Shown here piece after piece: positions 23,433 to 57,129 of a stretch of 64,000 nucleotides of DNA. Origin of the DNA: Olsenella sp. (GTDB lineage: Bacteria > Actinomycetota > Coriobacteriia > Coriobacteriales > Atopobiaceae); assembly GCA_022648325.1 (NCBI GenBank), contig JALCMG010000002.1, positions 62,001 to 126,000 on the forward strand, read 5' to 3'. How positions within the stretch are numbered: the first letter of the stretch is position 1; the number at the start of each line of letters is the position of its first letter. The translations under genes and the position numbers were made by a program. The notes under the pieces are model-generated. The model did not search any database. It was given only the letters and a program-made list of their open reading frames with translations, and was not told where the DNA came from.

Positions 23433-23530
23433 TCACCGGAGAGGCTAATTTGATGCAGAACGCGTCAAAAGCGCCCTTCCGGCGACAACGGGCGCTGCCA
23501 CCGGAGGGCGAGAAGTACGTTGGATGCTAC
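23433..23530. repeat. 53-bp palindromic repeat, one full unit plus a partial
   Basis: The full unit is 23433-23485 (TCACCGG ... CCGGCGA, one change from the TCGCCGG consensus end). The centre reads TTTGATGCAGAACGCGTCAAAA. A second, incomplete unit begins near 23498 with CACCGGAGGGCG. It lies just after the pepP stop on the minus strand, so it could form the 3' end of that transcript. Confidence 0.75.
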
Positions 23531-37214: not shown

Positions 37215-37267
37215 TCGCCGGAGAGGGCGTTTTGTTGCAAATGCCGCCAAAAACGGCCTTCCGGCGA
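37215..37267. repeat. 53-bp palindromic repeat, single unit
   Basis: One complete unit TCGCCGG ... CCGGCGA with centre GTTGCAAATGCCGCCAAAA, the most consensus-like single copy. It lies between the ABC exporter start and the GH3 gene end. The remaining bases to the next palindrome (37268-37420) show no gene. Confidence 0.8.
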
Positions 37268-37420: not shown

Positions 37421-37451
37421 ATGAGACAAAGGGACTGTCCCTTTGTCTCAT
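37421..37451. repeat. Palindrome of the GAGACAAAGGGAC family
   Basis: ATGAGACAAAGGGAC-T-GTCCCTTTGTCTCAT, a perfect 15-bp inverted repeat with a one-base centre, 53 bp after the GH3 stop. Near-identical elements lie at 40120-40148 and 57099-57129. It could act as a terminator or a REP-like element. Confidence 0.8.
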
Positions 37452-40119: not shown

Positions 40120-40148
40120 TGAGACAAAGGGAAACTCCCTTTGTCTCA
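40120..40148. repeat. Palindrome of the GAGACAAAGGGA family, variant copy
   Basis: TGAGACAAAGGGA-AAC-TCCCTTTGTCTCA, 13-bp perfect arms with a three-base loop. It ends one base from the stop of the small lipoprotein gene (40150), where it can serve as a 3'-end hairpin. Confidence 0.75.
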
Positions 40149-44746: not shown

Positions 44747-45988
44747 CTACGGCCGCACCCCCTCGAAGTACCCACGTCGCGGGAAGAGCTCGCGAGCCTG
44801 GGGAAAGAGCTCTGAGCACGTGGCCATGAAGTAGTCGTCCGTCATGGACGAGATGAAATCGACCACCGCGAGGTCTGGGTCCTTCTCCCAATCGTAGGTA
44901 CGGCCATACGGCGCAAGGTGCCGGCCGAGCGGCTCGATGTGGTGCCGGAAAATCGCGGAGGACTCGTCGCCCGCTCGCAGCGCCGCGAGCTCGTGCTCAT
45001 ACAGCATCGAGAAGAGCTCCGAGACGCCGCGCGAGAAGTCACCGTTGACCTCGGATGCGCCATAGATCTTCTCGTAGTTCTCGCGCTTTGCCCGGCGCAT
45101 CTCCGCGAAGCCCTCCTCGCTCATTTCGATGCGCGGTTTGTCCAGGCTGTTCTCGACCAAGTCCGCCACAAATGCCCCAAGCGCCCATGCGTTGTACGCC
45201 CCGCCGAGCCCGTCGTCAAAGCTCTTCTCGGTGCATAGGCCCGCACGGATGGCGTCCTGGCGGTCTTTGCCCACGTAGGCGATGATGTCAGAGACGCGAA
45301 CCACGCAGCCCTCGAGCGTCATGGGGCGCAGGTGCGCGATGGCGGGACCGCCCTTCTCCCAGCACTCCTCGACCCCGAGGTCGAACTCCCCAAAGCTGGC
45401 GAGGTCGCTCGTCTCGAAGACCTGCTGCTCGAACTCTCCGTTGTGGCAAATCACGCCATCCAGGGTCTGGAGGGCAAGGTTTCTCCCGTACGTCACGTCG
45501 AGCACGCGCACGCTCTGCACGTTGTGGGCAAAGAAGCGGCCGGTGTGCGCGTGGTAGACGTCGTTCAGGAAGCGCTCGCCGGCATGGCCAAACGGGGTGT
45601 GGCCAATGTCGTGCCCCAGCGCGATGGCCTCGATGAGGTCGAGGTTGAGCCCCAGCGCGGCGCCGATGTCCCGCGCGACTCGGGCAACGAGCTGAACGTG
45701 CAGGCCGCGCCGCGCCAGGTCGTCGTCCGCGCGAAACGAGAAGACTTGGGTCTTCCCTGCTAGGCGGTTGTACGCGGACATGTGCATGATCTTCTCGGAG
45801 TCGCGCACAAACGCCGGGCGCAGGGCGCTCTCCTGGTCGCGCTCGGTCTTGTCGCGACGCAACGCCGCAGAGCTTGGCGTGGCAAACGGCGAGAGCTCAC
45901 CGCTTGCGCGACGGTTGGCGACGGCCTTCTCGGCCCTTGGTGAGAGCTGCCCCGTGAGGTGGGGCGCAAGCTTGTTGGTAACTTCCAT
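44747..45988 (-). CDS. dgt: dGTPase-like HD-domain triphosphohydrolase
   Basis: 413 residues. The HD motif is IEAIALGHDIGHTPFGHAGE, preceded by RLAGKTQVFSFRADDDLARR, a pattern typical of dNTP triphosphohydrolases; a second patch FDLGVEECWEKGGP is unusual in detail. It removes triphosphate from dGTP or other dNTPs and would lower dNTP pools. The ATG at 45988 lies downstream of the repeat array at 46106-46218. Confidence 0.85.
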   Translation of the reverse strand: MEVTNKLAPHLTGQLSPRAEKAVANRRASGELSPFATPSSAALRRDKTERDQESALRPAFVRDSEKIMHMSAYNRLAGKTQVFSFRADDDLARRGLHVQLVARVARDIGAALGLNLDLIEAIALGHDIGHTPFGHAGERFLNDVYHAHTGRFFAHNVQSVRVLDVTYGRNLALQTLDGVICHNGEFEQQVFETSDLASFGEFDLGVEECWEKGGPAIAHLRPMTLEGCVVRVSDIIAYVGKDRQDAIRAGLCTEKSFDDGLGGAYNAWALGAFVADLVENSLDKPRIEMSEEGFAEMRRAKRENYEKIYGASEVNGDFSRGVSELFSMLYEHELAALRAGDESSAIFRHHIEPLGRHLAPYGRTYDWEKDPDLAVVDFISSMTDDYFMATCSELFPQARELFPRRGYFEGVRP

Positions 45989-46105
45989 GGCTGCCTCCTG
46001 GCATCGTGTTGATCGAGGCAGATTCTAGCAAGGAGACGCGACAGTATTTAGGGCCGCCAGGGCGCCCCCGGCGGACCAAGCCGCAACACCCCTCCGGGGA
46101 CCAAG

Positions 46106-46218
46106 TCGCCGGAGGGACAAATTTGTTGCAATATGCATCATCTAGCGCCCTCCGGCGACAAATAATCGCCGGAGGGCGCCGTATGTTGCAAATTGCGTCA
46201 AAAGGGGCGTTCCGGCGA
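46106..46218. repeat. 53-bp palindromic repeat, two full units plus remnant
   Basis: Units at 46106-46158 and 46166-46218, each TCGCCGG ... CCGGCGA, separated by CAAATAA (7 bp), so the period is 60 bp. Centres read GTTGCAATATGCATCATC and GTTGCAAATTGCGTCAAAA. The end of the first and start of the second form a perfect 14-bp hairpin GCGCCCTCCGGCGA/TCGCCGGAGGGCGC with the 7-base loop. A decayed unit is visible at about 46048-46100. Confidence 0.85.
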
Positions 46219-46258
46219 CACGCCACGCGCCTGAAAACGTACCCAAAGGAGCTACCGC

Positions 46259-47635
46259 CTACTCCACGACGAGGCAGCCCATGTTGAGGCGATGCGTCCA
46301 CTCGCCAATGACGTTGCCCTTGCCGCAACGGGTGAAGACGCCGCCGAACTTGCCGTTGAAGAGGAAGAGGCCCTCCATGTTGCTCATCTCCGGTGCCGCA
46401 AGGGGATCCTCGCCGGGCTTGAGCACACCGCCGCGCAGGGTGGGCGTGCGGTACTGCGGCGCATACGCCTGCACCACGCCACCACTCTTGGCACACGCAG
46501 CAAGAGCGCGCTCCCATTCCTCCTGCGTCTCGCAGTCGAGTCCAGCAACCACGCCAACGGCGTTGTAGCCACCCGCAGGCTTCACGATCCAGCGGTCCTT
46601 CTTGGCATAGGGCGAGAGGTCCGAATTGGCATCAAGCAACACGGTCTCGGGGACGTGCGCCTCGATGAAGGCTTGCTCCTCGGGCGTGAGAATACCGTCA
46701 ACCGCCTGCGAGCGCATGACGGCGAAGACCGTCTTCGTGGCGCAGGGCCAGGTCCTGTAGCCGCCGATAACGCAGGCAAGACCACGACGTGCGGCCTCGG
46801 CCAGTGCGTCGGCGCCGGCGCAGGGCTTCTCGGCAATCTCGGACGTGACGGCACGACGGTACACGCAGGCAACGGGGCCGCCGGGCACCATGAGGAGGTC
46901 GTGTCCGGCAACGTGCTCAATCCGCAGGTCGCGGATGTCGCAGAACTGCGCGTAGAACCCCTTGTCGGAGAGACGCCAGAGGAAGTCCTCAAGCTCGTCG
47001 GTCGACGCGCTCTCGGAGTAGTCAACGATGCACAGCGAAGGGTGGTCCGAAGCGCTGCCAAAGCGGTCAGCGTTCGCCCAACTCACGTACGTCTCCCTGA
47101 TGGCATCGATTGCCTCGCCCACCAGGTCGTACGTCGTAATCGAGGGGTGCTTCTCGGCGAACTTGCGGTAGGTCTGGGTTGCCTGGATGGCACGAGTGAC
47201 CTCAACGGTTGTGGTCATGCCAGCCGAGCCATCGGTGTTGAGCTCGCAGAACTGGTAGTCGCCAGTCTCCTCGTTGAAGAAGATGTCCACGCGGGCAATG
47301 GGAATCATCTGCTCATAGCCGGTGGGAATGAGCGTGAGCTCCTCGAGCTGTGGGGAGAGGTGGAAGAGCTTACGGAAATCGGGGTTGCGCAGGTACTCCG
47401 CCGTAATCTTGTCCATGATGCGACCCATGGTCTCGGCAGCGTCGCGCAGGATGTCAACCTGGGCTGCGTCAAAAATCTTGGGGGTCATTGCCCAAGAAAC
47501 CGGTCCCCCGTGATAGAGGGCATGCGTGGTGAGAAGGTAGCGGTCACCAGCCTCCCTGCTCTCAACGTCACCGGCAAGCTCGCGCGCAGTCGACAGGAAC
47601 TCATCCTCAAGTTCGCGTCCATGAAGGCTAGTCAT
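46259..47635 (-). CDS. Glutathionylspermidine-synthase-like ATP-grasp protein
   Basis: About 458 residues with an arrangement like the circularly permuted ATP-grasp (glutathionylspermidine synthase C-terminal) family: RVDIFFNEETGDYQFCELNT with the acidic metal-binding Glu-Leu-Asn-Thr-Asp, SAGMTTTVEVTRA, and the lysine-bearing strand KKDRWIVKPAGGYNAVGVVA; GLFLFNGKFGGVFTRCGKGN lies near the end. Family members make amide bonds on peptides or polyamines; the substrate here is unknown. The ATG at 47635 has AGGAAG. An SGNH-GNAT gene lies 210 bp upstream on the same strand. Confidence 0.78.
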   Translation of the reverse strand: MTSLHGRELEDEFLSTARELAGDVESREAGDRYLLTTHALYHGGPVSWAMTPKIFDAAQVDILRDAAETMGRIMDKITAEYLRNPDFRKLFHLSPQLEELTLIPTGYEQMIPIARVDIFFNEETGDYQFCELNTDGSAGMTTTVEVTRAIQATQTYRKFAEKHPSITTYDLVGEAIDAIRETYVSWANADRFGSASDHPSLCIVDYSESASTDELEDFLWRLSDKGFYAQFCDIRDLRIEHVAGHDLLMVPGGPVACVYRRAVTSEIAEKPCAGADALAEAARRGLACVIGGYRTWPCATKTVFAVMRSQAVDGILTPEEQAFIEAHVPETVLLDANSDLSPYAKKDRWIVKPAGGYNAVGVVAGLDCETQEEWERALAACAKSGGVVQAYAPQYRTPTLRGGVLKPGEDPLAAPEMSNMEGLFLFNGKFGGVFTRCGKGNVIGEWTHRLNMGCLVVE

Positions 47636-47705
47636 ATGTGTCACTTCCTGATCGCCGAGGTCGGAGCGCGACATTTCGGCGAGCGATGCGAATATGTCTG
47701 TAAAG

Positions 47706-47724
47706 AGCTATCCAATAGATAGCT
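47706..47724 (-). promoter_or_regulatory. Leader stem-loop before the ATP-grasp gene
   Basis: AGCTATC-TATTG-GATAGCT, a perfect 7-bp inverted repeat about 70 bp before the start at 47635. It may be an operator or leader structure; a TACAAT that could be a -10 lies just upstream of it on the minus strand. Confidence 0.3.
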
Positions 47725-47845
47725 GCCCGATTGTAGACGCTCGGATGCAGCATCACTGATTCTGCACACAACATGTCAGGTCTTTGTACACTCGCACGGC
47801 AGGAGGTTGATATTGGGCAATACCCGCCCGGAGTAGACGAAAAGC

Positions 47846-49702
47846 CTACGCTCGGCTCAGGAAGTGCATGCCCTTCTCGGGATACACCGTAAGCCCAAGC
47901 TTCTCCTGTAGGGCAATGGACGCCTGGTTGTCGGGCCACACCTCGCCCCACGGAACGAGCCCTCGGTCTAGTTGCTCGTTGATCTTCGCAGACTCAAGCG
48001 CGGTGGCCCACCCGCGGCGGCGCTGCTCGGGAAAGACCTCGAGCATGCCAATCGCGCCCTCGGGATGCTCGCCGATAAAGGCGCAGAGACGTCCCGCCTC
48101 AAAGCCGCCCAACACAAGGCCGCGGGCGAGAATGTCCTCCAGCTCGCCGGGAGCCAGGTACTCGGGATGCGAGTAGTGCGAGGCCACAAGCTCGGCGTAT
48201 GCGGGCGTGAGCGTGCGGATATCAAGTGAGGGATCCACCTCGAGGCGAGTCTTCTTCTCGTAGATCACCATGTTGCAGGGCGCGTCTTCGGTGAGGCCAA
48301 GGTCGCGGCGAACATCGTACACCGGCGCGGCGCCAAGTGCGCACACAAGGTCACGGGACGCAAAGACGTCCAGTGCCTCACGAACGGCCTTCCTCGAGGT
48401 GCCCCACACAAAGGTCCCGTGCCGCGGCACCTCCAAGAGGCACGCGCCCTTCTCGGCGACGAGGACCTCGCCAATCCCACGACGAGCGCACTCCAGGATG
48501 GGAAACGCCTCGCGCGGCCCCTTGGAGAGAAGGTCGATGGCACGTGCCCTACGCGTCTCGGCCGGCTCCGCCAGGGTGTTCATGATGTAGGCAAGGCGCT
48601 CTGCGATAGTTGCCGAGCCGTCTGCGTTGGGATGCTCGTAGCCGTCGGCCATGAGGACGGGGCTCGCCTGCAAAAGGCGCGACCCCTCCACCAGGTGCAT
48701 GCCGGGGTTTGCAGCAACGGCGCTGCGGATAAGGTCGGGCACCACGGCAAAGCAGCTGCCACGGTGCGTTGGGTGGGTCTCGTCCAGGTGCCAAAGCGGG
48801 GTCAGGGTCCATACGGATGCCTCGGGCCACGCCTCCGCAACCTCGAAGAGGCTCGTGCGGATGTCGCGCGAGATGCGCATCTTCTGGCAGGGCTCGTAGC
48901 GGTAGTTCTCGCCCAGCTCTACCACCACGGCCGAAGGCGAGGCCTCATCGACAAGCCCCACGGTTGAGCCGGGGAGAAACACCTGCCCACCAATCCCCTG
49001 GTTGAGCACGTCCAAACCAAGCTTAGTAGCGAGAAGGGCCGGCCAGTTGTGCGCGGGGTCCCCCGAAACGAAGCCCTGCGCGATGGAGTCACCTATCACA
49101 AGAAGCTGGTCGCGCGACGCCACCGGCTCGATCACGTTGCCGTCGCCAACAACGCACCGCAGGTCGCAGCTGGTCAGGCACGGAAGCCACACGCGCACGT
49201 GATGGTGACGCCCCATGCCGGGAAGGCGCTGAAGGCTGCTCTCGGGCGCCTCGCCGGGGTCGTCGAGCGCAAATTCAACGCGCGTGACGCCGTCACGGTT
49301 CTCCTCGGGAAGCACGCAGGGCAGGTGCCTGCCGTCGACATCGCACGAGAAGCCGTCGAGGGGGCCGTCCGGGGCGAAAGCGCACTCGGCCACCTCGGTG
49401 AGAACCTCGCGCGAGCCGCGCGGGAATTCTTCCACGCGGGCCTCAAGCACGATGGCCGAGGAATCTGTCTCGAACTCCACGGTGATCCCCGACGCGCAAG
49501 CGGCCATGGCACGATAGAGGCCAGGGTGCCACGCACGGCAACTCCCTATGGCCTTGAGCTGGCTCTTTGCAAAGCGCCATGGGTGGATCCACCCATGGCC
49601 CAAGGGCTCTGCCCACACCGCGCCGTGAAGCAGTCCCTCGACGGGAACGCTCACGAGCAACTCGGCCATATCCTTCTCGTCCATGAGTTCACTGACGCTC
49701 AT
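47846..49702 (-). CDS. SGNH hydrolase fused to a GNAT acetyltransferase
   Basis: 618 residues in three parts. The N-terminal beta-rich part (about 1-200) resembles the front domain of some esterases. The SGNH part has the nucleophile VIGDSIAQG near residue 205, the Gly block GIGGQVF, LGENYRY where a GxND-type motif is expected, and the late pair DGYEHPNADG. The C-terminal part (about 390-618) is GNAT-like, with a lobe containing RRGIGEVLVAEKGACLLEVP and the acetyl-CoA strand GAIGMLEVFPEQRRRGWATA. Thus one protein could both remove and transfer acyl groups. The direct target is unknown; the neighbouring ATP-grasp gene is on the same strand. Confidence 0.78.
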   Translation of the reverse strand: MSVSELMDEKDMAELLVSVPVEGLLHGAVWAEPLGHGWIHPWRFAKSQLKAIGSCRAWHPGLYRAMAACASGITVEFETDSSAIVLEARVEEFPRGSREVLTEVAECAFAPDGPLDGFSCDVDGRHLPCVLPEENRDGVTRVEFALDDPGEAPESSLQRLPGMGRHHHVRVWLPCLTSCDLRCVVGDGNVIEPVASRDQLLVIGDSIAQGFVSGDPAHNWPALLATKLGLDVLNQGIGGQVFLPGSTVGLVDEASPSAVVVELGENYRYEPCQKMRISRDIRTSLFEVAEAWPEASVWTLTPLWHLDETHPTHRGSCFAVVPDLIRSAVAANPGMHLVEGSRLLQASPVLMADGYEHPNADGSATIAERLAYIMNTLAEPAETRRARAIDLLSKGPREAFPILECARRGIGEVLVAEKGACLLEVPRHGTFVWGTSRKAVREALDVFASRDLVCALGAAPVYDVRRDLGLTEDAPCNMVIYEKKTRLEVDPSLDIRTLTPAYAELVASHYSHPEYLAPGELEDILARGLVLGGFEAGRLCAFIGEHPEGAIGMLEVFPEQRRRGWATALESAKINEQLDRGLVPWGEVWPDNQASIALQEKLGLTVYPEKGMHFLSRA

Positions 49703-49877
49703 CGCACGTCGCCTCTCTGCGATTCAGCCACGTTGTGTGCGCTGCGATTGATGTTTTGGGCATCTATTGTGGCAGAAACCGAGACCGCGTGGGCGCTGGG
49801 AGAGGAAAGCCTCAGGCGCAATACGAAAACGCATCCCCAAGCGTCGGCGGAAGGATATCCGCACACAGACCCCCGCA

Positions 49878-50414
49878 CTACTCCTCGTTTGCCGCACGGC
49901 GGAGCGGTTCGTAGGCGGCGATAAGGTCGTCGAGGCGCATCCTTGCGTTTGCCGGGCTGGTCGAGGGGAGCCCCACGCACGGCATGCCACATGTTGGCTC
50001 GACAAGCCGCCGGTAGATCCGGGTTGCGGTTCCACCGGTGCAAAAAACGCACGAGATGGGCGCTGCCGAGAGAATCCGTCCCACGTCGTTGGGGACGGGG
50101 TCTCGAATGGAGGCGTCGCTCGCGCCAGTGATTGTACAGCTCGCGAGCACGTCCCAGAGCGCAACGTGGTGACGCAGGCACAGGTCTCTGCGGTCGTCGT
50201 TTTCCTCGGGAAGCGGCTCATCCCACAGGGCCGCCATAACGCGCCAGAAGCGGTTCTGGGGGTTACCGTAGTAGAAACACACTTCGCGCGACTTGGGACT
50301 GGGCATGGTGCCAAGTACCAAGACGCGGCTATTCTCATCAAATATTGGCTCTAGCGGGTGAACGACGAGCTGAGAGGACCGGCCAGTCTCGCCTTGGTGT
50401 GCGCTACTCGCCAT
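49878..50414 (-). CDS. DNA-deoxyinosine-type glycosylase (UDG superfamily)
   Basis: 178 residues. Motif 1 is VLGTMPSPKSREVCFYYGNP followed by NRFWRV, typical of the hypoxanthine/MUG-like branch (TIGR04274); the late LPSTSPAN is motif 2. It removes deaminated purines or mismatched bases from DNA. The ATG at 50414 overlaps the end of the phosphoesterase gene by 11 bp. Vsr, another mismatch enzyme, lies about 0.85 kb upstream. Confidence 0.85.
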   Translation of the reverse strand: MASSAHQGETGRSSQLVVHPLEPIFDENSRVLVLGTMPSPKSREVCFYYGNPQNRFWRVMAALWDEPLPEENDDRRDLCLRHHVALWDVLASCTITGASDASIRDPVPNDVGRILSAAPISCVFCTGGTATRIYRRLVEPTCGMPCVGLPSTSPANARMRLDDLIAAYEPLRRAANEE

Positions 50415-51207
50415 CGCGAATTGGCTCCGCGAACTCCTCGCCGTCGTCCAGGCGCATAACCGTGACCTGGCCAAAGTCGGCACCCCCGGCGGCACCGGAA
50501 TCGATGTCCCAGCGATCCGCCACGCCACCGGTAGCATCGCACGCGCCAACGCGCACCATCTGCGCAATACCGTCAGAGTTCCTCACCGGCCGGTCAAAGT
50601 CGTCGGTCATGGACGCAAGGTAGGGCGTTGGGGTGTGGCCCGCCACGACAATAGGCCCCTCTCCCCTCTCGTTGAGAAGCCCTGTTGGCACCGACCAGAA
50701 CTCATCGCGAATCCACAGCAGGTCATCGGGGATCTGCGCGGCAAGAAGCCCATCGATTGCGGCATCGTCCCACGCGCCATCCGCAGGCAGAGGCCCTCCC
50801 GGCCTAATGCCTGCGTGAGCCATGATGTACTGACGGCCCGACACCTCAACATGAGCCGAGAGGGGAAGTCCGCGCACCCACTCCACGAGTTCGCTCGCCT
50901 CATCATCCGAGAGGCCCCGAAGGCTCGAGAGCGTGGCCATGCCGCCGTTGATCGCCCAATTTGCCTGAGACACAACATCGTCTACATGGTCGAACGCATC
51001 GAGCATGAGGTCCTCGTGGTTGCCCTTGAGCACGTGCACGTTGGGGAGCGAGCGCGTAAACCGCATGACGCCGACAGGATCCGGCCCGCGATCGATCATG
51101 TCCCCCAGGCAGAACACGACGTCATCTGAGCCCGGAGACACGCGCTCAAACACGCGCTCGAGCGTTGCTCGGTGTCCGTGGACATCAGAAAAGACGTATG
51201 TCGACAT
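50404..51207 (-). CDS. PPP-family metallophosphoesterase
   Basis: 267 residues starting MSTYVFSDVHGHRATLERVF. The metal-binding motifs of protein phosphatase 1-like bacterial enzymes are complete: SDVHGH, GDMIDRGPDP, and KGNHEDLM, with AGHTPTP later. It could act on phosphoproteins or on dinucleotides (ApaH-like). The ATG at 51207 has AGGGGG. It overlaps the glycosylase gene by 11 bp. Confidence 0.87.
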   Translation of the reverse strand: MSTYVFSDVHGHRATLERVFERVSPGSDDVVFCLGDMIDRGPDPVGVMRFTRSLPNVHVLKGNHEDLMLDAFDHVDDVVSQANWAINGGMATLSSLRGLSDDEASELVEWVRGLPLSAHVEVSGRQYIMAHAGIRPGGPLPADGAWDDAAIDGLLAAQIPDDLLWIRDEFWSVPTGLLNERGEGPIVVAGHTPTPYLASMTDDFDRPVRNSDGIAQMVRVGACDATGGVADRWDIDSGAAGGADFGQVTVMRLDDGEEFAEPIRDGE

Positions 51208-51259
51208 GGCAACACCCCCTATCGTTGGCCACGGATACCAGCTTAGACCTGCGGCTGAT

Positions 51260-51772
51260 TTAACGCAAAGTATGCCGTGAACGTAGCTTTTGCCGCTCTC
51301 GGCGAAGCTTCCAAGGGTGAGGCGAGCCAATCTCGACCACGCGCGCAATGTGGGGACCCTCCCCACTCGCACGGTCAAGCTCGCGGAGAACCTCCTGCAT
51401 GGTGGGCTCGAGGCGCTCCTTCTTGAGCATGCACTCCCACACCACGAGGACTGTCCAACCGTCTTTTACCAGCAGTGCATTGTCGCGCGCGTCGCGGGCG
51501 CGGTTGCGTTCGAACTTCGCCCTCCAAAACTCCACGTTTGATTTGGGAAGCGGCAGGGCGCAGTGGGGGCATCGATGCCAGAAGCAGCCGTTCACAAAGA
51601 TGGCGACGCGCCTGCCGGGAAAGCATATATCGGGCTTCCCCGGCGCCTTCTTCCAGTGCAGTCGATAGCCGGTGTAGCCGGCCTCGCGCAGGCGCGCACG
51701 CACAAGCAACTCGGGCTTTGTGTCCTTGCTCTTGTTCGCCTGCATCACATGGCGCGTGGCCTCGCTCGTCAA
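51260..51772 (-). CDS. vsr: Very-short-patch repair endonuclease
   Basis: 170 residues of the Vsr family, which nicks T:G mismatches arising at methylated cytosine sites. It has RHVMQANKSKDTKPELLVRA, the catalytic Asp region APGKPDICFPGRRVAIFVNG and the zinc-binding patch CFWHRCPHCALPLPKSNVEF. The TTG at 51772 starts the product; an ATG at 51745 is an alternative. A partner cytosine methyltransferase (Dcm) is normally linked but none is seen in the window. Confidence 0.9.
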   Translation of the reverse strand: MTSEATRHVMQANKSKDTKPELLVRARLREAGYTGYRLHWKKAPGKPDICFPGRRVAIFVNGCFWHRCPHCALPLPKSNVEFWRAKFERNRARDARDNALLVKDGWTVLVVWECMLKKERLEPTMQEVLRELDRASGEGPHIARVVEIGSPHPWKLRRERQKLRSRHTLR

Positions 51773-51789
51773 GACGCTAGGCCCCCGTC

Positions 51790-52752
51790 CTACGCCACCG
51801 GGGCGTCCGAGGCAGCAGGCGCCCCCTCAAAGTTGAGGTCGCCCGTGAGTGCGCGGGAGGCGTCGTCGCCAAAGTCACGTGAGAGAACTGCAGATACCAC
51901 CGAAGGTGCACGGTCTAGCGCGCGGTCGTAAAGATCCTCAAATGAATCCCTGCTCACGGCACCCGTCTCGGGATTGGTCCATGCGCGGTGCTCGGCGTTG
52001 TCAAACTCCGAGGAAGCAGACGCGCGCACGCGGTGTGAGAGCGCGCTGTAGGTTGAGTACGGGGCGCCGGTGACCGCGCGCTCGAGGGAGGCAATCACGC
52101 TGCGATGCTGGTCGCGCGTGGCGTAAAGCAGGCGCAGCATGGTGCGGTAGCAGCTCACCGAAGCGGAGAACGTGGTGGGATCGACGGGCTTGTCATATGT
52201 CCATAGGGCTGCGTAGAAATAGATCTTGTCGATGATGGCAAGCACTTGGCGAGAGGCGTGGAGGGTATTCGCAAACGGCCTGTATTCCGCAATGGTCTTG
52301 GCAGTCTTTCGATAGAGCACCGCCTCGTCGAGGTCGCGCTCCACCTCCATGTGAACCTTTCCCGCACACTCGGGGCCAAGCCCGGGAACGCCTGCATGCG
52401 TGAGAGAGCGCGCCCAAGCATTCACAAAGGGATGGACCGTCGAGTCAAGAAGCCAATGGCACGAGAATCCCGCAAGGTATGCGGCACCAACGTCCTTCTC
52501 GCGCTTGGGCAGGCGATCGACGGCCTCACGCATGGCCGCGAGGAGACTGGCAGGTCGCTTGTCGTGCATAAGACTTCCCAACTGCGCCCATTTGGCCATA
52601 AGGGGATAGAGCTTGATGTAGAAAAGCGGGTCTGGACCCTGGCTCCCCAGAAGGAAGGCGTCACGCTCGTCCAAGGTCGCCAGGGGAAGCTCGGCCTTCG
52701 CGCGATCGGCAACGTCGCGAGCAAAGAAGTCGTGCGTGAGAATGTCTGGCAT
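51790..52752 (-). CDS. Zinc-dependent phospholipase-C-like protein
   Basis: 320 residues in the zinc-dependent phospholipase C (DUF) family. The start MPDILTHDFFARDVADRAKA is followed by AFLLGSQGPDPLFYIKLYP and YLAGFSCHWLLDSTVHPFVN, the last carrying His-Asp residues expected to bind metal. There is no signal peptide, so it is likely cytoplasmic or peripheral. The ATG at 52752 has AAAGGGG. Vsr follows 17 bp downstream. Confidence 0.78.
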   Translation of the reverse strand: MPDILTHDFFARDVADRAKAELPLATLDERDAFLLGSQGPDPLFYIKLYPLMAKWAQLGSLMHDKRPASLLAAMREAVDRLPKREKDVGAAYLAGFSCHWLLDSTVHPFVNAWARSLTHAGVPGLGPECAGKVHMEVERDLDEAVLYRKTAKTIAEYRPFANTLHASRQVLAIIDKIYFYAALWTYDKPVDPTTFSASVSCYRTMLRLLYATRDQHRSVIASLERAVTGAPYSTYSALSHRVRASASSEFDNAEHRAWTNPETGAVSRDSFEDLYDRALDRAPSVVSAVLSRDFGDDASRALTGDLNFEGAPAASDAPVA

Positions 52753-53052
52753 CTTGGCCCCTTTCTGGTTCCAAAGGGCATGCGAGAAGCGCAGTACCCT
52801 CGAATCGCAATTATGCCCCATCTTGGGCGCACCAGACGGACAGCGGCGCAAAGGGCACCCTCCACCCGCAGCCGCCCGCCGCCAGGTTGCGTGCGTCCGC
52901 GGCAGCAACACATCCAGACGGCGCCGCGTGCCAACAACTGTGCCTAAGCCATTACATAATCCTGACAAAAGCGATGAATTCTACCGGCAAGCAAACGATA
53001 ACGTGTTGAGTTGTATGAATGCGGGCGAGTCATTCCTACAGAGAGGATCACG
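52753..53052. other. Divergent intergenic region
   Basis: 300 bp between the phospholipase-C-like gene (minus) and the MFS gene (plus). It must hold both promoters. An AT-rich stretch near 52960-53015 is the likely site for the MFS promoter, but no confident -10/-35 pair could be set. No open frame of note. Confidence 0.35.
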
Positions 53053-54282
53053 ATGTCTTTCAAAATGACGAAGGCCGAGAAGAGCTGGGTCATGTACGAC
53101 GTGGGCAACTCTGCGCTGGTGCTTCTCGCCACGAGTGTCATTCCCATCTACTTCAAGTCGCTAGCAGATGGGCCGGCCCTTGTCGCCTGGAGCTATGCGG
53201 AGACCGTAGCATCGCTGGTCATCGCCCTGCTCATGCCCATACTGGGCTCAGTTGCCGACCAGCAGGGCATGAAGAAGAAGTTCATCATTGGCTCCGTGGG
53301 AACGGGAGCCGTGGCCTGCGTGGCGATGGGCTTCCCCACCAGTGCGATGGCGTTTCTCGTCATCTACGTGATCTCTTCCGTAGCGCTCAACACGTCGTTC
53401 GTGTTCTATGACGCGCTGCTTGTTGACGCCACAACCGACGACCGTATGGACGACGTCTCGAGCAACGGATACGCATGGGGCTACATCGGCAGCTGCGTGC
53501 CGTTTCTCGCTTGTCTCGCCTTTGTGCTGGTGAGACCGTTTGGCATGAGCCTTCAGGCGGCCATGCAGATTTCTTTTCTGATCACGGCGGCATGGTGGGT
53601 GGCGTTCACGATCCCCATGCTCAAGAACGTGGAGCAGACCCACTACAAGCCGCGCGAGGAGCACGCCCTTGCCAACGCCGTGCGTGGTATTGGCGCCACC
53701 GCCAAGCGCATCTGGCGTGACCCGTCCATCAGAAATTACATCATTGCGTACTTCTTCTACATCGACGGCGTGCACACCATCATCAAGCTTTCCACCTCGT
53801 ACGGGGCAGACCTTGGTATCGACGGAACGCAGCTGGTGCTGGCGCTTCTCGTCACGCAGTTCGTGGCGTTTCCCTCGGCTATCGCATACGGGCGACTTGG
53901 GCACAAGCTTGGTACCCGTACGATGATTCTGGTTGGCATTGCCGGCTATACCTTCATCACGCTGTTCGCCGCGTTCTTCCTGCGCACTGCCGTCGAGTTC
54001 TGGATTCTGGCCATCATGGTTGGTCTCTTCCAGGGCGGCCTGCAGGCGCTCTCGAGGTCTGAGTTTGGCAAGCTCTGCCCCAAGGAGCACGCCAACGAGT
54101 ACTTTGGGTTCTTCGACATCTTTGGCAAGTACGCCGCCATTCTCGGCACCTTCATCGTTGGCACCATGACGGCGGCAACTGGCAACAGCTCACTGGGAGT
54201 GCTTTCGATTGTGGTGCTCTTCATCATTGGCTTCGTGGTGATGCTCCGCGTCCCCGAGCGCACGACTGCGACGGAGGAGTAA
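53053..54282 (+). CDS. MFS transporter, UMF1/Atg22-like family
   Basis: 409 residues with about 12 membrane segments, of the UMF1 (vacuole-effluxer-like) MFS branch. The start is MTKAEKSWVMYDVGNSALVL; ADQQGMKKKFIIG is the loop between segments 2 and 3; VSSNGYAWGYIGSC and EFGKLCPKEHANEYFGFFDI are family patches. The ATG at 53053 has AGAGAGGAT. The substrate is unknown. Confidence 0.87.
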   Translation: MSFKMTKAEKSWVMYDVGNSALVLLATSVIPIYFKSLADGPALVAWSYAETVASLVIALLMPILGSVADQQGMKKKFIIGSVGTGAVACVAMGFPTSAMAFLVIYVISSVALNTSFVFYDALLVDATTDDRMDDVSSNGYAWGYIGSCVPFLACLAFVLVRPFGMSLQAAMQISFLITAAWWVAFTIPMLKNVEQTHYKPREEHALANAVRGIGATAKRIWRDPSIRNYIIAYFFYIDGVHTIIKLSTSYGADLGIDGTQLVLALLVTQFVAFPSAIAYGRLGHKLGTRTMILVGIAGYTFITLFAAFFLRTAVEFWILAIMVGLFQGGLQALSRSEFGKLCPKEHANEYFGFFDIFGKYAAILGTFIVGTMTAATGNSSLGVLSIVVLFIIGFVVMLRVPERTTATEE

Positions 54283-54309
54283 GCACTCCGACAACAGATT
54301 GGCATGTCA

Positions 54310-54422
54310 TCGCCGGAAGGGCTTATTTGGCGAGAAATGCAACAGCAGACACTCTCCGGCGACAAAAAGTCGCCGGAGAAGCTGTTTCGACTCAAATTGC
54401 AACAGATGGAAGCTACCGGCGA
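54310..54422. repeat. 53-bp palindromic repeat, two units (reverse)
   Basis: Units at 54310-54362 and 54370-54422, linked by CAAAAAG (7 bp; period 60). Both read TGCAAC rather than GTTGCA, thus reverse orientation. The junction forms a 10-bp stem TCTCCGGCGA/TCGCCGGAGA. It lies 28 bp after the MFS stop and before the nuclease-like gene. The 240 bp from 54423 to 54666 contain no other recognised feature. Confidence 0.85.
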
Positions 54423-54666
54423 CATCCCACCAAGGGATCGCCTCTCAGCCCCCAGCACCTATCTCAAAAAACACTCGACGCATTCTTGCGAAGAGTCATT
54501 TTTTTAACCCGCGCCAAAACCACCAGCTTTTACCTGCGCAAATATGGATACAGTCAAGTGGCGTGACGGCTATCGGCAAGAAGGGTGCTCGCTCTTTGCA
54601 AGAAGCGTGCAAGCAGCATGTGGCACTCTCCCCTCATTAGATTCCAATAAGGAGGAGGTGCAACCC

Positions 54667-55659
54667 GTGAGCCTTTTATTTCTAGGATTCCAAACCGCCG
54701 CCGTTTTGGCAGAGAGAAACGCCCGCAGGGGATTCAAGGATTTCCTTCCATCCAACGTGGTGCTGCTCTCACAGGCATCCAGAAGTCGTACCGAGATCAT
54801 CTCGCACGACCTTTCGGAATACGGTCTCACTGACAGGGGGCTGGACGTTATTGTTCCGCGAGATGCCTCGAGAGATCCGCGCTCACCCCTGCGGTATCAC
54901 CGTGGCCACCCACTATTCCCTTCTGGCTCATTTCTTCGGGGAAGAGGGGGCATCTTCATCGCCTCCCCCGCCCTCTCTTTGCTACAGCTTTCGTTGGCAC
55001 TAGACGAATGCTCCTGGCTCAAACTCGCATATCGTTTCACAGGAACTTTTTCGCTTGACGAATCTGCGGAAGACGGCATTGTCGAGCGTCCCCCCCTCGC
55101 GAGTACACAAGAATTGGAGGCCTACTTCTCCTCAGCTGCAGAGATAGGCATTCGTGGAGCCAGAAGGTCATGTCGACTTCTGCGGCAAGTACGAAACGGC
55201 TCGGCATCTCCAATGGAGTCAGAACTCGAAATCGCCCTCTCCCGGCCACGGCCCATGTCGGGATATGGCTGCGTTCATGCAACGCTCAACGACCAGATCC
55301 GCTATGACGAGCTCGCGCGGAATCTAACAGGCCATCTCTTTGCGCGAATTGACCTCCATTACCAGCAAGCACGCTATGGACTCGAGTATAGCGGGCGCTT
55401 GCCACACCAATGGCAAGTACCCGAAGACGTTACGAGACAAAACGCGCTTGCCCATATGGGTGAGGAGACTGACTTCGTGACATATCGCCAGCTATCGGAT
55501 GCACGCGAGCTTGAACTCGTTGCAAGGAAAGTAACGCGCAAGACGAGGAGGACATGGAGAGAGAACCTTCTCCTCCCTCTCGAGCAAAGGCAGGCGTTTC
55601 TCGACGAACTGCTTCGCGAGAAGGAGTTCGAGACGGGTGCCGGGGTTTTGAGAGTGTAG
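54667..55659 (+). CDS. Nuclease-like protein of unknown function
   Basis: 330 residues from a GTG that follows a strong AAGGAGGAGGT site; a longer frame exists upstream but without such a site. The N-terminus begins (V)SLLFLGFQTAAVLAERN. Near the end ARIDLHYQQARYGLEYSGRL-PHQW, then VTRQNAL, follows the DUF559/Vsr-like restriction-endonuclease pattern (Asp, Glu, His/Arg). No family is named with confidence; the closest guess is an Actinobacterial PD-(D/E)xK protein. Base composition is lower in GC than the neighbours and repeat arrays flank both sides, which suggests acquired DNA. Confidence 0.7.
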   Translation: MSLLFLGFQTAAVLAERNARRGFKDFLPSNVVLLSQASRSRTEIISHDLSEYGLTDRGLDVIVPRDASRDPRSPLRYHRGHPLFPSGSFLRGRGGIFIASPALSLLQLSLALDECSWLKLAYRFTGTFSLDESAEDGIVERPPLASTQELEAYFSSAAEIGIRGARRSCRLLRQVRNGSASPMESELEIALSRPRPMSGYGCVHATLNDQIRYDELARNLTGHLFARIDLHYQQARYGLEYSGRLPHQWQVPEDVTRQNALAHMGEETDFVTYRQLSDARELELVARKVTRKTRRTWRENLLLPLEQRQAFLDELLREKEFETGAGVLRV

Positions 55660-55675
55660 GTAACGCCGGTGCATG

Positions 55676-55788
55676 TCGCCGGAAGCGCGCTATTATTGCG
55701 CTTTGCATCAAACGAGCCTCTCCGGCGACTTTTTATCGCCGGAGAGGTCATTTTGACGTCATCTGCAACATAACACGCCTTCCGGCGA
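55676..55788. repeat. 53-bp palindromic repeat, two units (head-to-head)
   Basis: Units at 55676-55728 (forward) and 55736-55788 (reverse), linked by CTTTTTA (7 bp). The junction forms a perfect 12-bp hairpin CCTCTCCGGCGA/TCGCCGGAGAGG. It lies between the convergent ends of the nuclease-like gene and argD, where it may act as a two-way terminator. Confidence 0.85.
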
Positions 55789-57098: not shown

Positions 57099-57129
57099 AT
57101 GAGACAAAGGGACAGTCCCTTTGTCTCAT
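57099..57129. repeat. Palindrome of the GAGACAAAGGGAC family, inside the arg operon
   Basis: ATGAGACAAAGGGAC-A-GTCCCTTTGTCTCAT, 15-bp perfect arms, filling most of the 53-bp gap between argB (stop at 57133) and argD. It could moderate argD expression or be an inserted element. Confidence 0.8.

What the first reader, a model, noticed from the sequence alone, without database searches (positions are those of the whole stretch)
46145..55748. Hairpins between adjacent repeat units show compensatory changes
At the three paired sites the end of one unit and start of the next form a stem with a 7-base loop: 14 bp (GCGCCC... with ...GGGCGC), 10 bp (TCTCC/GGAGA) and 12 bp (CCTCTCC/GGAGAGG). The bases beyond the shared CCGGCGA differ between sites but still pair. 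This points to selection on the folded form, or to copying of the hairpin as a block.
Basis: seen in the sequence. Interest (0 to 1): 0.62.

Follow-up and report, generated by a model that had tools for sequence, protein, structure and literature searches.

The report
Repeat-built hairpins at gene ends
A gut bacterium and its closest relatives carry dozens of short repeat pairs just past the ends of genes, and where two repeats meet they form a strong hairpin whose two arms have changed together, most likely because the hairpin stops transcription coming from both sides.

Summary
In detail: the three junctions fold into 14-, 10- and 12-bp stems with 7-nt loops. The repeat is a 53-bp unit, usually paired at a 60-bp period. 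It occurs about 40 times in this genome and in all eight species sampled of the genus (Tractidigestivibacter; Atopobiaceae). It is absent from all other genera of the family searched. In 48 ortholog-deduplicated junctions, covariation exceeds every shuffle and every slid control (0.188 against 0.127±0.012). It is confined to the stem, stopping about 16 nt from the centre. Between orthologs the stem changes 2-3 times more slowly than the unit interior. Pairing is not universal: 44% of junctions have two or fewer pairs beyond the core, against 71% expected. This favours selection on the folded form over block copying. Elements sit between convergent genes (27 of 44 against 15 of 120 without an element; p=1.5e-9) or just past a gene's end. 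At one window site relatives carry unrelated strong hairpins instead. Best reading: a genus-specific, REP-like family acting as bidirectional intrinsic terminators. U-tracts are short and no transcript data exist, so function is inferred. New member of a known kind.

The parts
46106..46158 (+). repeat unit 1 of first pair (53 bp, TCGCCGG...CCGGCGA)
   Evidence: pattern and model hits
46166..46218 (+). repeat unit 2 of first pair
   Evidence: best-scoring unit in the genome, 57 bits
46145..46179 (.). junction hairpin 1: 14-bp stem, 7-nt loop; R2 model hit 46128-46196 at 74.5 bits
54310..54362 (+). repeat unit 1 of second pair, 27 bp after the stop of gene 53011-54282 (+)
54370..54422 (+). repeat unit 2 of second pair
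54353..54379 (.). junction hairpin 2: 10-bp stem, 7-nt loop (11 bp if the C-G inside the loop is counted)
55676..55728 (+). repeat unit 1 of third pair, between convergent ORFs ending at 55659 (+) and 55835 (-)
55736..55788 (+). repeat unit 2 of third pair
55717..55747 (.). junction hairpin 3: 12-bp stem, 7-nt loop
   Evidence: orthologs in G002 and G003 show double changes
37215..37267 (+). solitary unit of the same family; the orthologous site holds a pair in G001 and G004 and a related variant in other species
23436..23510 (+). diverged unit with the remnant of a junction arm (GCGCCCTTCCGGCGA...CCGGAGGGCG)
   Evidence: (G000:C2:85436-85485)
46092..46112 (.). weak junction remnant left of unit 46106 (CCCTCCGGGGACCAAGTCGCCGGAGGG), probably a decayed third unit

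Best explanation
The sites belong to a genus-specific family of intergenic palindromic repeats. Its working part is the hairpin formed where two adjacent 53-bp units meet: arm - CCGGCGAC - 5-nt AT-rich loop - GTCGCCGG - arm, flanked on both sides by CAAAA...TTTTG. The hairpin lies just past the 3' ends of genes, mostly between convergent genes. It most likely acts on RNA as a bidirectional intrinsic terminator: whichever strand is transcribed, the transcript folds the same stem and then reads a short U-rich stretch. Selection on stem stability keeps the two arms paired while their sequence drifts. Shown: family, hairpin, covariation, slower change of the stem, placement. Inferred: transcription through the element, termination, and selection as the cause of the pairing.
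For: Covariation of the junction stem in 48 ortholog-deduplicated junctions, above all 500 shuffles and all slid controls, reproduced with other statistics. Chimeric junctions fold less stably, -27.9±0.45 against -29.7 kcal/mol on average. Arms within one unit, which are 39 bp apart, do not match. Stem sites change 2-3 times more slowly than the unit interior between orthologs. Of 44 junction clusters, 27 lie between convergent genes, 16 tandem and 1 divergent, against 15 convergent of 120 adjacencies without an element in the same loci, p=1.5e-9. In tandem contexts the element usually lies 20-60 bp past the upstream gene's stop. T is enriched on both sides just beyond the stem (0.47, 0.76, 0.62, 0.90 at positions 19-22); 76% of half-junctions have at least 4 T in 8 nt. 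At the site orthologous to 46106, six of seven relatives carry other strong hairpins on the gene's strand, several with TTTT at the stem base.
Against: A standard terminator scan calls none of the three window junctions because the U-tract is short and offset; only 43% of half-junctions have at least 5 T in 8 nt. Many junctions pair poorly beyond the core. Single-sided, stem-breaking changes outnumber double compensatory ones in orthologs; double changes are 23 against 16.9±3.1, p=0.04. Among tandem sites G-U mismatches are not commoner than A-C (7 against 12, n=15), so RNA-specific selection is not demonstrated. The gene calls are from a simple codon-usage scorer. No transcript data exist here.
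Confidence: 0.58

Rival explanations
1. The hairpin works on RNA but as a 3'-end stabiliser or processing site (a barrier to exonucleases, as proposed for REP elements in E. coli), with termination done elsewhere, for example by Rho.
For: Same placement past gene ends and same covariation. Weak U-tracts. At the 37215 site other strong hairpins lie closer to the gene end.
Against: The strong bias to convergent pairs and the symmetric CAAAA-stem-TTTTG layout fit a two-way terminator better. At the 46106 site the replacement hairpins of relatives look like terminators.
Confidence: 0.2
2. The matched arms result from DNA-level copying: strand switching at a short-loop inverted repeat corrects one arm to the other, or units are inserted as matched hairpins by a transposase; no function of the fold is needed.
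For: Pairing excess is seen only across the short loop, not across the 39-bp interior. Clean gain or loss of a 60-bp unit between direct repeats (G002:C2:429457 against G006:C9:71030). Different sub-families at the same site in different species.
Against: Copying does not explain why stem sites diverge more slowly than the interior between orthologs nor the placement past gene ends. No target-site duplication in 50 arrays. Neither Y1 transposase gene of the genome is flanked by the family.
Confidence: 0.14
3. The units are binding sites of a dyad-recognising protein (conserved TTTTGNYGCAANNTTGCNNCAAAA inside, TCGCCGGA at the ends), e.g. a nucleoid or domain-boundary factor, and the hairpin is incidental.
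For: The interior dyad is recognisable across many paralogs. Positions persist between species.
Against: Between orthologs the interior changes 2-3 times faster than the junction stem. The family has variants with other interiors (TTTTGTACGCA..TGCTGCCAAAA) at the same kind of site.
Confidence: 0.08

Closest known systems
Intrinsic terminators with compensatory stem evolution (Bacillus cereus; PMC5381666)
   Same: Stem pairs switch between WC types through short-lived intermediates; bidirectional terminators were also predicted in that study.
   Different: There the subject is ordinary intrinsic terminators; here the terminator-like hairpin is assembled at the junction of two copies of a dispersed repeat and its U-tract is short.
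REP/BIME elements and GTAG- or CGTC-tagged REP dimers (Di Nocera et al. 2013, PMC3733652)
   Same: Short intergenic palindromes, often dimers, mostly downstream of genes and between convergent or unidirectional ORFs, thought to act as RNA hairpins.
   Different: Unit is 53 bp, dimer spacing is fixed at 7 nt, no unpaired GTAG tag, no associated RAYT; the conserved hairpin lies between units.
EFAR and other MITE-type repeats proposed to act as bidirectional terminators (EFAR is named in PMC3733652; its terminator role is from my own knowledge)
   Same: Dispersed repeat said to provide two-way termination between genes.
   Different: No sequence relation was tested; no target-site duplication found here.
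DNA uptake sequence inverted pairs of Neisseria (from my own knowledge)
   Same: A short repeated word occurs as an inverted pair past genes and forms terminators.
   Different: TCGCCGGA is only 3.6-fold over chance in the window and 13 of its 21 occurrences are in the 53-bp units; here a 53-bp unit surrounds the word.

Membership tests
bidirectional intrinsic terminator | stable GC-rich stem-loop on both strands | tested here: met
   z = -5.5 to -10.8 on both strands at all three sites
bidirectional intrinsic terminator | U-rich tract directly after the stem on both strands | tested here: inconclusive
   TTTTG at positions 19-23 is enriched; at least 4 T in 8 nt in 76%, at least 5 in 43% of half-junctions; standard scan calls none in the window
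bidirectional intrinsic terminator | location past gene ends, preferably between convergent genes | tested here: met
   27 convergent, 16 tandem, 1 divergent of 44 clusters; p=1.5e-9 against adjacencies without element
bidirectional intrinsic terminator | RNA 3' ends at the hairpin | not testable with these tools
   no transcript data
REP/REPIN | dispersed intergenic palindrome, many copies, often dimers | tested here: met
   about 40 units, mostly paired
REP/REPIN | unpaired GTAG or CGTC tag at one end of the stem | tested here: not met
   unit ends are TCGCCGGA/TCCGGCGA; no conserved GTAG or CGTC seen beside the unit ends
REP/REPIN | RAYT gene flanked by the element | tested here: not met
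   two Y1_Tnp genes in the genome; L051 is flanked by a different palindrome, L050 by none of this family
MITE | terminal inverted repeats with target-site duplication | tested here: not met
   8-bp inverted ends present, but direct flanking repeats no commoner than shuffled in 50 arrays
known Rfam RNA family | match at gathering score | tested here: not met
   no hit in the window

The most novel reading that the evidence does not exclude
The genus uses a dispersing, interchangeable set of terminator cassettes: repeat sub-families with different stem cores (CCGGCGAC/GTCGCCGG; CCGGCGTC-type; CTGTGGCGCC/GGCGCCACAG in G007) and a shared layout replace one another at the same gene ends, so that termination is supplied by a spreading repeat family whose functional hairpin exists only between two units.
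Probability: 0.22. Interest if true: 0.52.

Novelty: new member of a known kind. Interest (0 to 1): 0.33.

Why it matters
It gives many roughly replicated hairpins in eight related species, at orthologous and non-orthologous sites, with measurable covariation. That is a useful natural data set for how terminator-like stems evolve and for how repeat families may be recruited to end transcripts in GC-rich Actinomycetota. The kind of element itself (REP-like intergenic hairpins, bidirectional terminators) is known.

Tried and rejected
RAYT mobilisation: two Y1_Tnp genes found but not flanked by this family. Target-site duplications: none. Within-unit hairpin as the conserved structure: arms match no better than chance and in places worse. 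Full inverted copying of one unit onto the next: pairing excess stops at position 16. G-U against A-C asymmetry to prove RNA-level selection: only 15 tandem sites, no signal. A first clustering of arrays collapsed everything because gapped identity was too lenient and was redone with flanks. Literature searches for such repeats in Olsenella, Tractidigestivibacter and Atopobiaceae found nothing relevant.

Full report
Observation. The three paired sites were read directly. The unit pattern occurs 7 times in the window against 0.04 expected and the junction pattern 3 times against 0.04. RNA folding gives z from -5.5 to -10.8 on either strand.

The family. In the whole genome the exact unit pattern occurs 29 times (one of these, at C10, looks like a chance match). 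A sequence model (R1) finds about 40 sites, most in tandem pairs at a 60-bp period, some single or with a decayed neighbour. The consensus is TCGCCGGAGGGCCnnTTTTGTTGCAAnTTGCGnCAAAAnnGGCCCTCCGGCGA. The family occurs in all eight species of the genus that were searched, but not in 17 other genera of the family (R1) nor in about 30 with the junction model (R2); single weak matches occur in the order (G034 with R1, G052 with R2). Counts with R2 are lower bounds because the search scores at most 84 candidates per genome. Contig lengths identify relatives: G001 is Tractidigestivibacter scatoligenes SK9K4, G006 T. montrealensis KD21, G002 bacterium OL-1, G003 Olsenella sp. kh2p3, G004 MAG RUG11916.

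Is the pairing more than chance? Junctions were collected from eight genomes and grouped by flanking sequence so that each orthologous site counts once. Three tests agree. First, contiguous pairs beyond CCGG average 3.67 against 2.27±0.19 when arms are exchanged between sites, p<1/2000, with 44% reaching five or more against 13%. Second, at positions 11-18 from the centre 332 cells pair against 298±9 in 71 junctions, z=3.8, with G-C/C-G reversals at position 15 (25 and 16 cases) and 16. Third, the tool count on 48 junctions gives a covariation score of 0.188 against 0.127±0.012, no shuffle of 500 as high, and at most 0.108 when partners are slid. Related rows were reduced to one per orthologous site, but remaining paralogy is not modelled. 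The effect is moderate: 21 of 48 junctions have two or fewer pairs beyond the core.

Selection or copying? Arms of the same unit (39 bp apart) do not match, and at some positions match less than chance, because the two halves of a unit are of different types. Matching across the junction stops at about position 16, shortly before the conserved TTTTG. In 35 ortholog comparisons the mismatch rate is 0.09 in the core, 0.12 in the arms, 0.32 at positions 16-18 and 0.29 in the unit interior; choosing sites by their CCGG core biases the core value but hardly the arms. Double changes are in mild excess (23 against 16.9±3.1, p=0.04), with 8 WC-to-WC switches; one example is the ortholog of the window's third site, where two pairs differ on both sides between G003 and the window genome. 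I take this as selection on the fold with some tolerance; a contribution of template-switch correction cannot be excluded.

Placement. With genes called by a codon-usage scorer trained on the window, 27 of 44 junction clusters lie between convergent genes, 16 between tandem genes and one between divergent genes, against 15 convergent of 120 gene adjacencies without an element in the same loci. In tandem contexts the element usually lies 20-60 bp past the upstream gene's stop. Positions are often shared between species whose flanks are 74-95% identical, so many insertions are old. At the site orthologous to 46106, G001, G003 and G004 have a variant hairpin (CTGCTCCGGCGTC...GGCGCCGGAGCAG), G007 a hairpin with another core (CCTGTGGCGCCAGTCTGGCGCCACAGG), G002 and G006 an unrelated hairpin (AAGCCGCAGGC...GCCTGCGGCTTTT); only G005 lacks a strong one. 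Different hairpins filling one place on the strand of the upstream gene suggest that what is kept is a hairpin past that gene.

Mechanism. The layout CAAAA - stem - loop - stem - TTTTG is symmetric, as a two-way terminator would be. The U-tract is short (T at 0.47, 0.76, 0.62, 0.90 over four positions, then G) and a standard scan does not call the three window sites, so termination may be partial, or the element may protect 3' ends instead. No transcript data were available. Steps shown: repeat family, hairpin, covariation, slower change of the stem, placement. Steps inferred: transcription, termination, selection as the cause.

Comparison with the known. Compensatory evolution of intrinsic terminators is described in Bacillus cereus (PMC5381666). 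Dispersed intergenic palindromic dimers past genes and between convergent ORFs are described as REP super-families (PMC3733652). This family lacks their GTAG or CGTC tag and has no RAYT of its own, and there is no target-site duplication. It is filed as working like a bidirectional terminator and as a REP-like repeat, not as a member of the GTAG/CGTC REP families or of MITEs.

Noticed in passing
window 37422-37450, 40120-40148, 57100-57128: A second palindromic repeat, TGAGACAAAGGGAnnnTCCCTTTGTCTCA, three copies against 0 expected. It flanks a RAYT-like gene (L051, 1303-2220) on both sides and so is probably the REP or TIR of that transposase.
   Followed up: partly
L299-L303, orthologs of window 45988-46259: Relatives carry a long imperfect inverted repeat CTGCGACTTAATAGCAGT...ACTGCTATTAAGKCGCAG in the same intergenic region; absent from the window genome.
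   Followed up: no
window 46259-47674 (-): 471-aa protein, 89-92% identical across the genus, without any Pfam match.
   Followed up: no
G002:C2:429457 and G006:C9:71030: Clean presence or absence of one 60-bp unit between direct repeats CCGGCGACAA at an orthologous site: units are gained or lost whole.
   Followed up: partly
repeat family, all copies: Each unit is asymmetric: one half carries TTTGTTGCAA, the other TTTTGRYGC, and the two halves of a unit agree less than chance at position 21/33. Reason unknown.
   Followed up: partly
junction position 6 (CCGG[C/A]GAC...GTC[G/T]CCGG): This single stem pair is often mismatched (C-T or A-G) and changes fast (0.24 between orthologs) inside an otherwise rigid core.
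   Followed up: no
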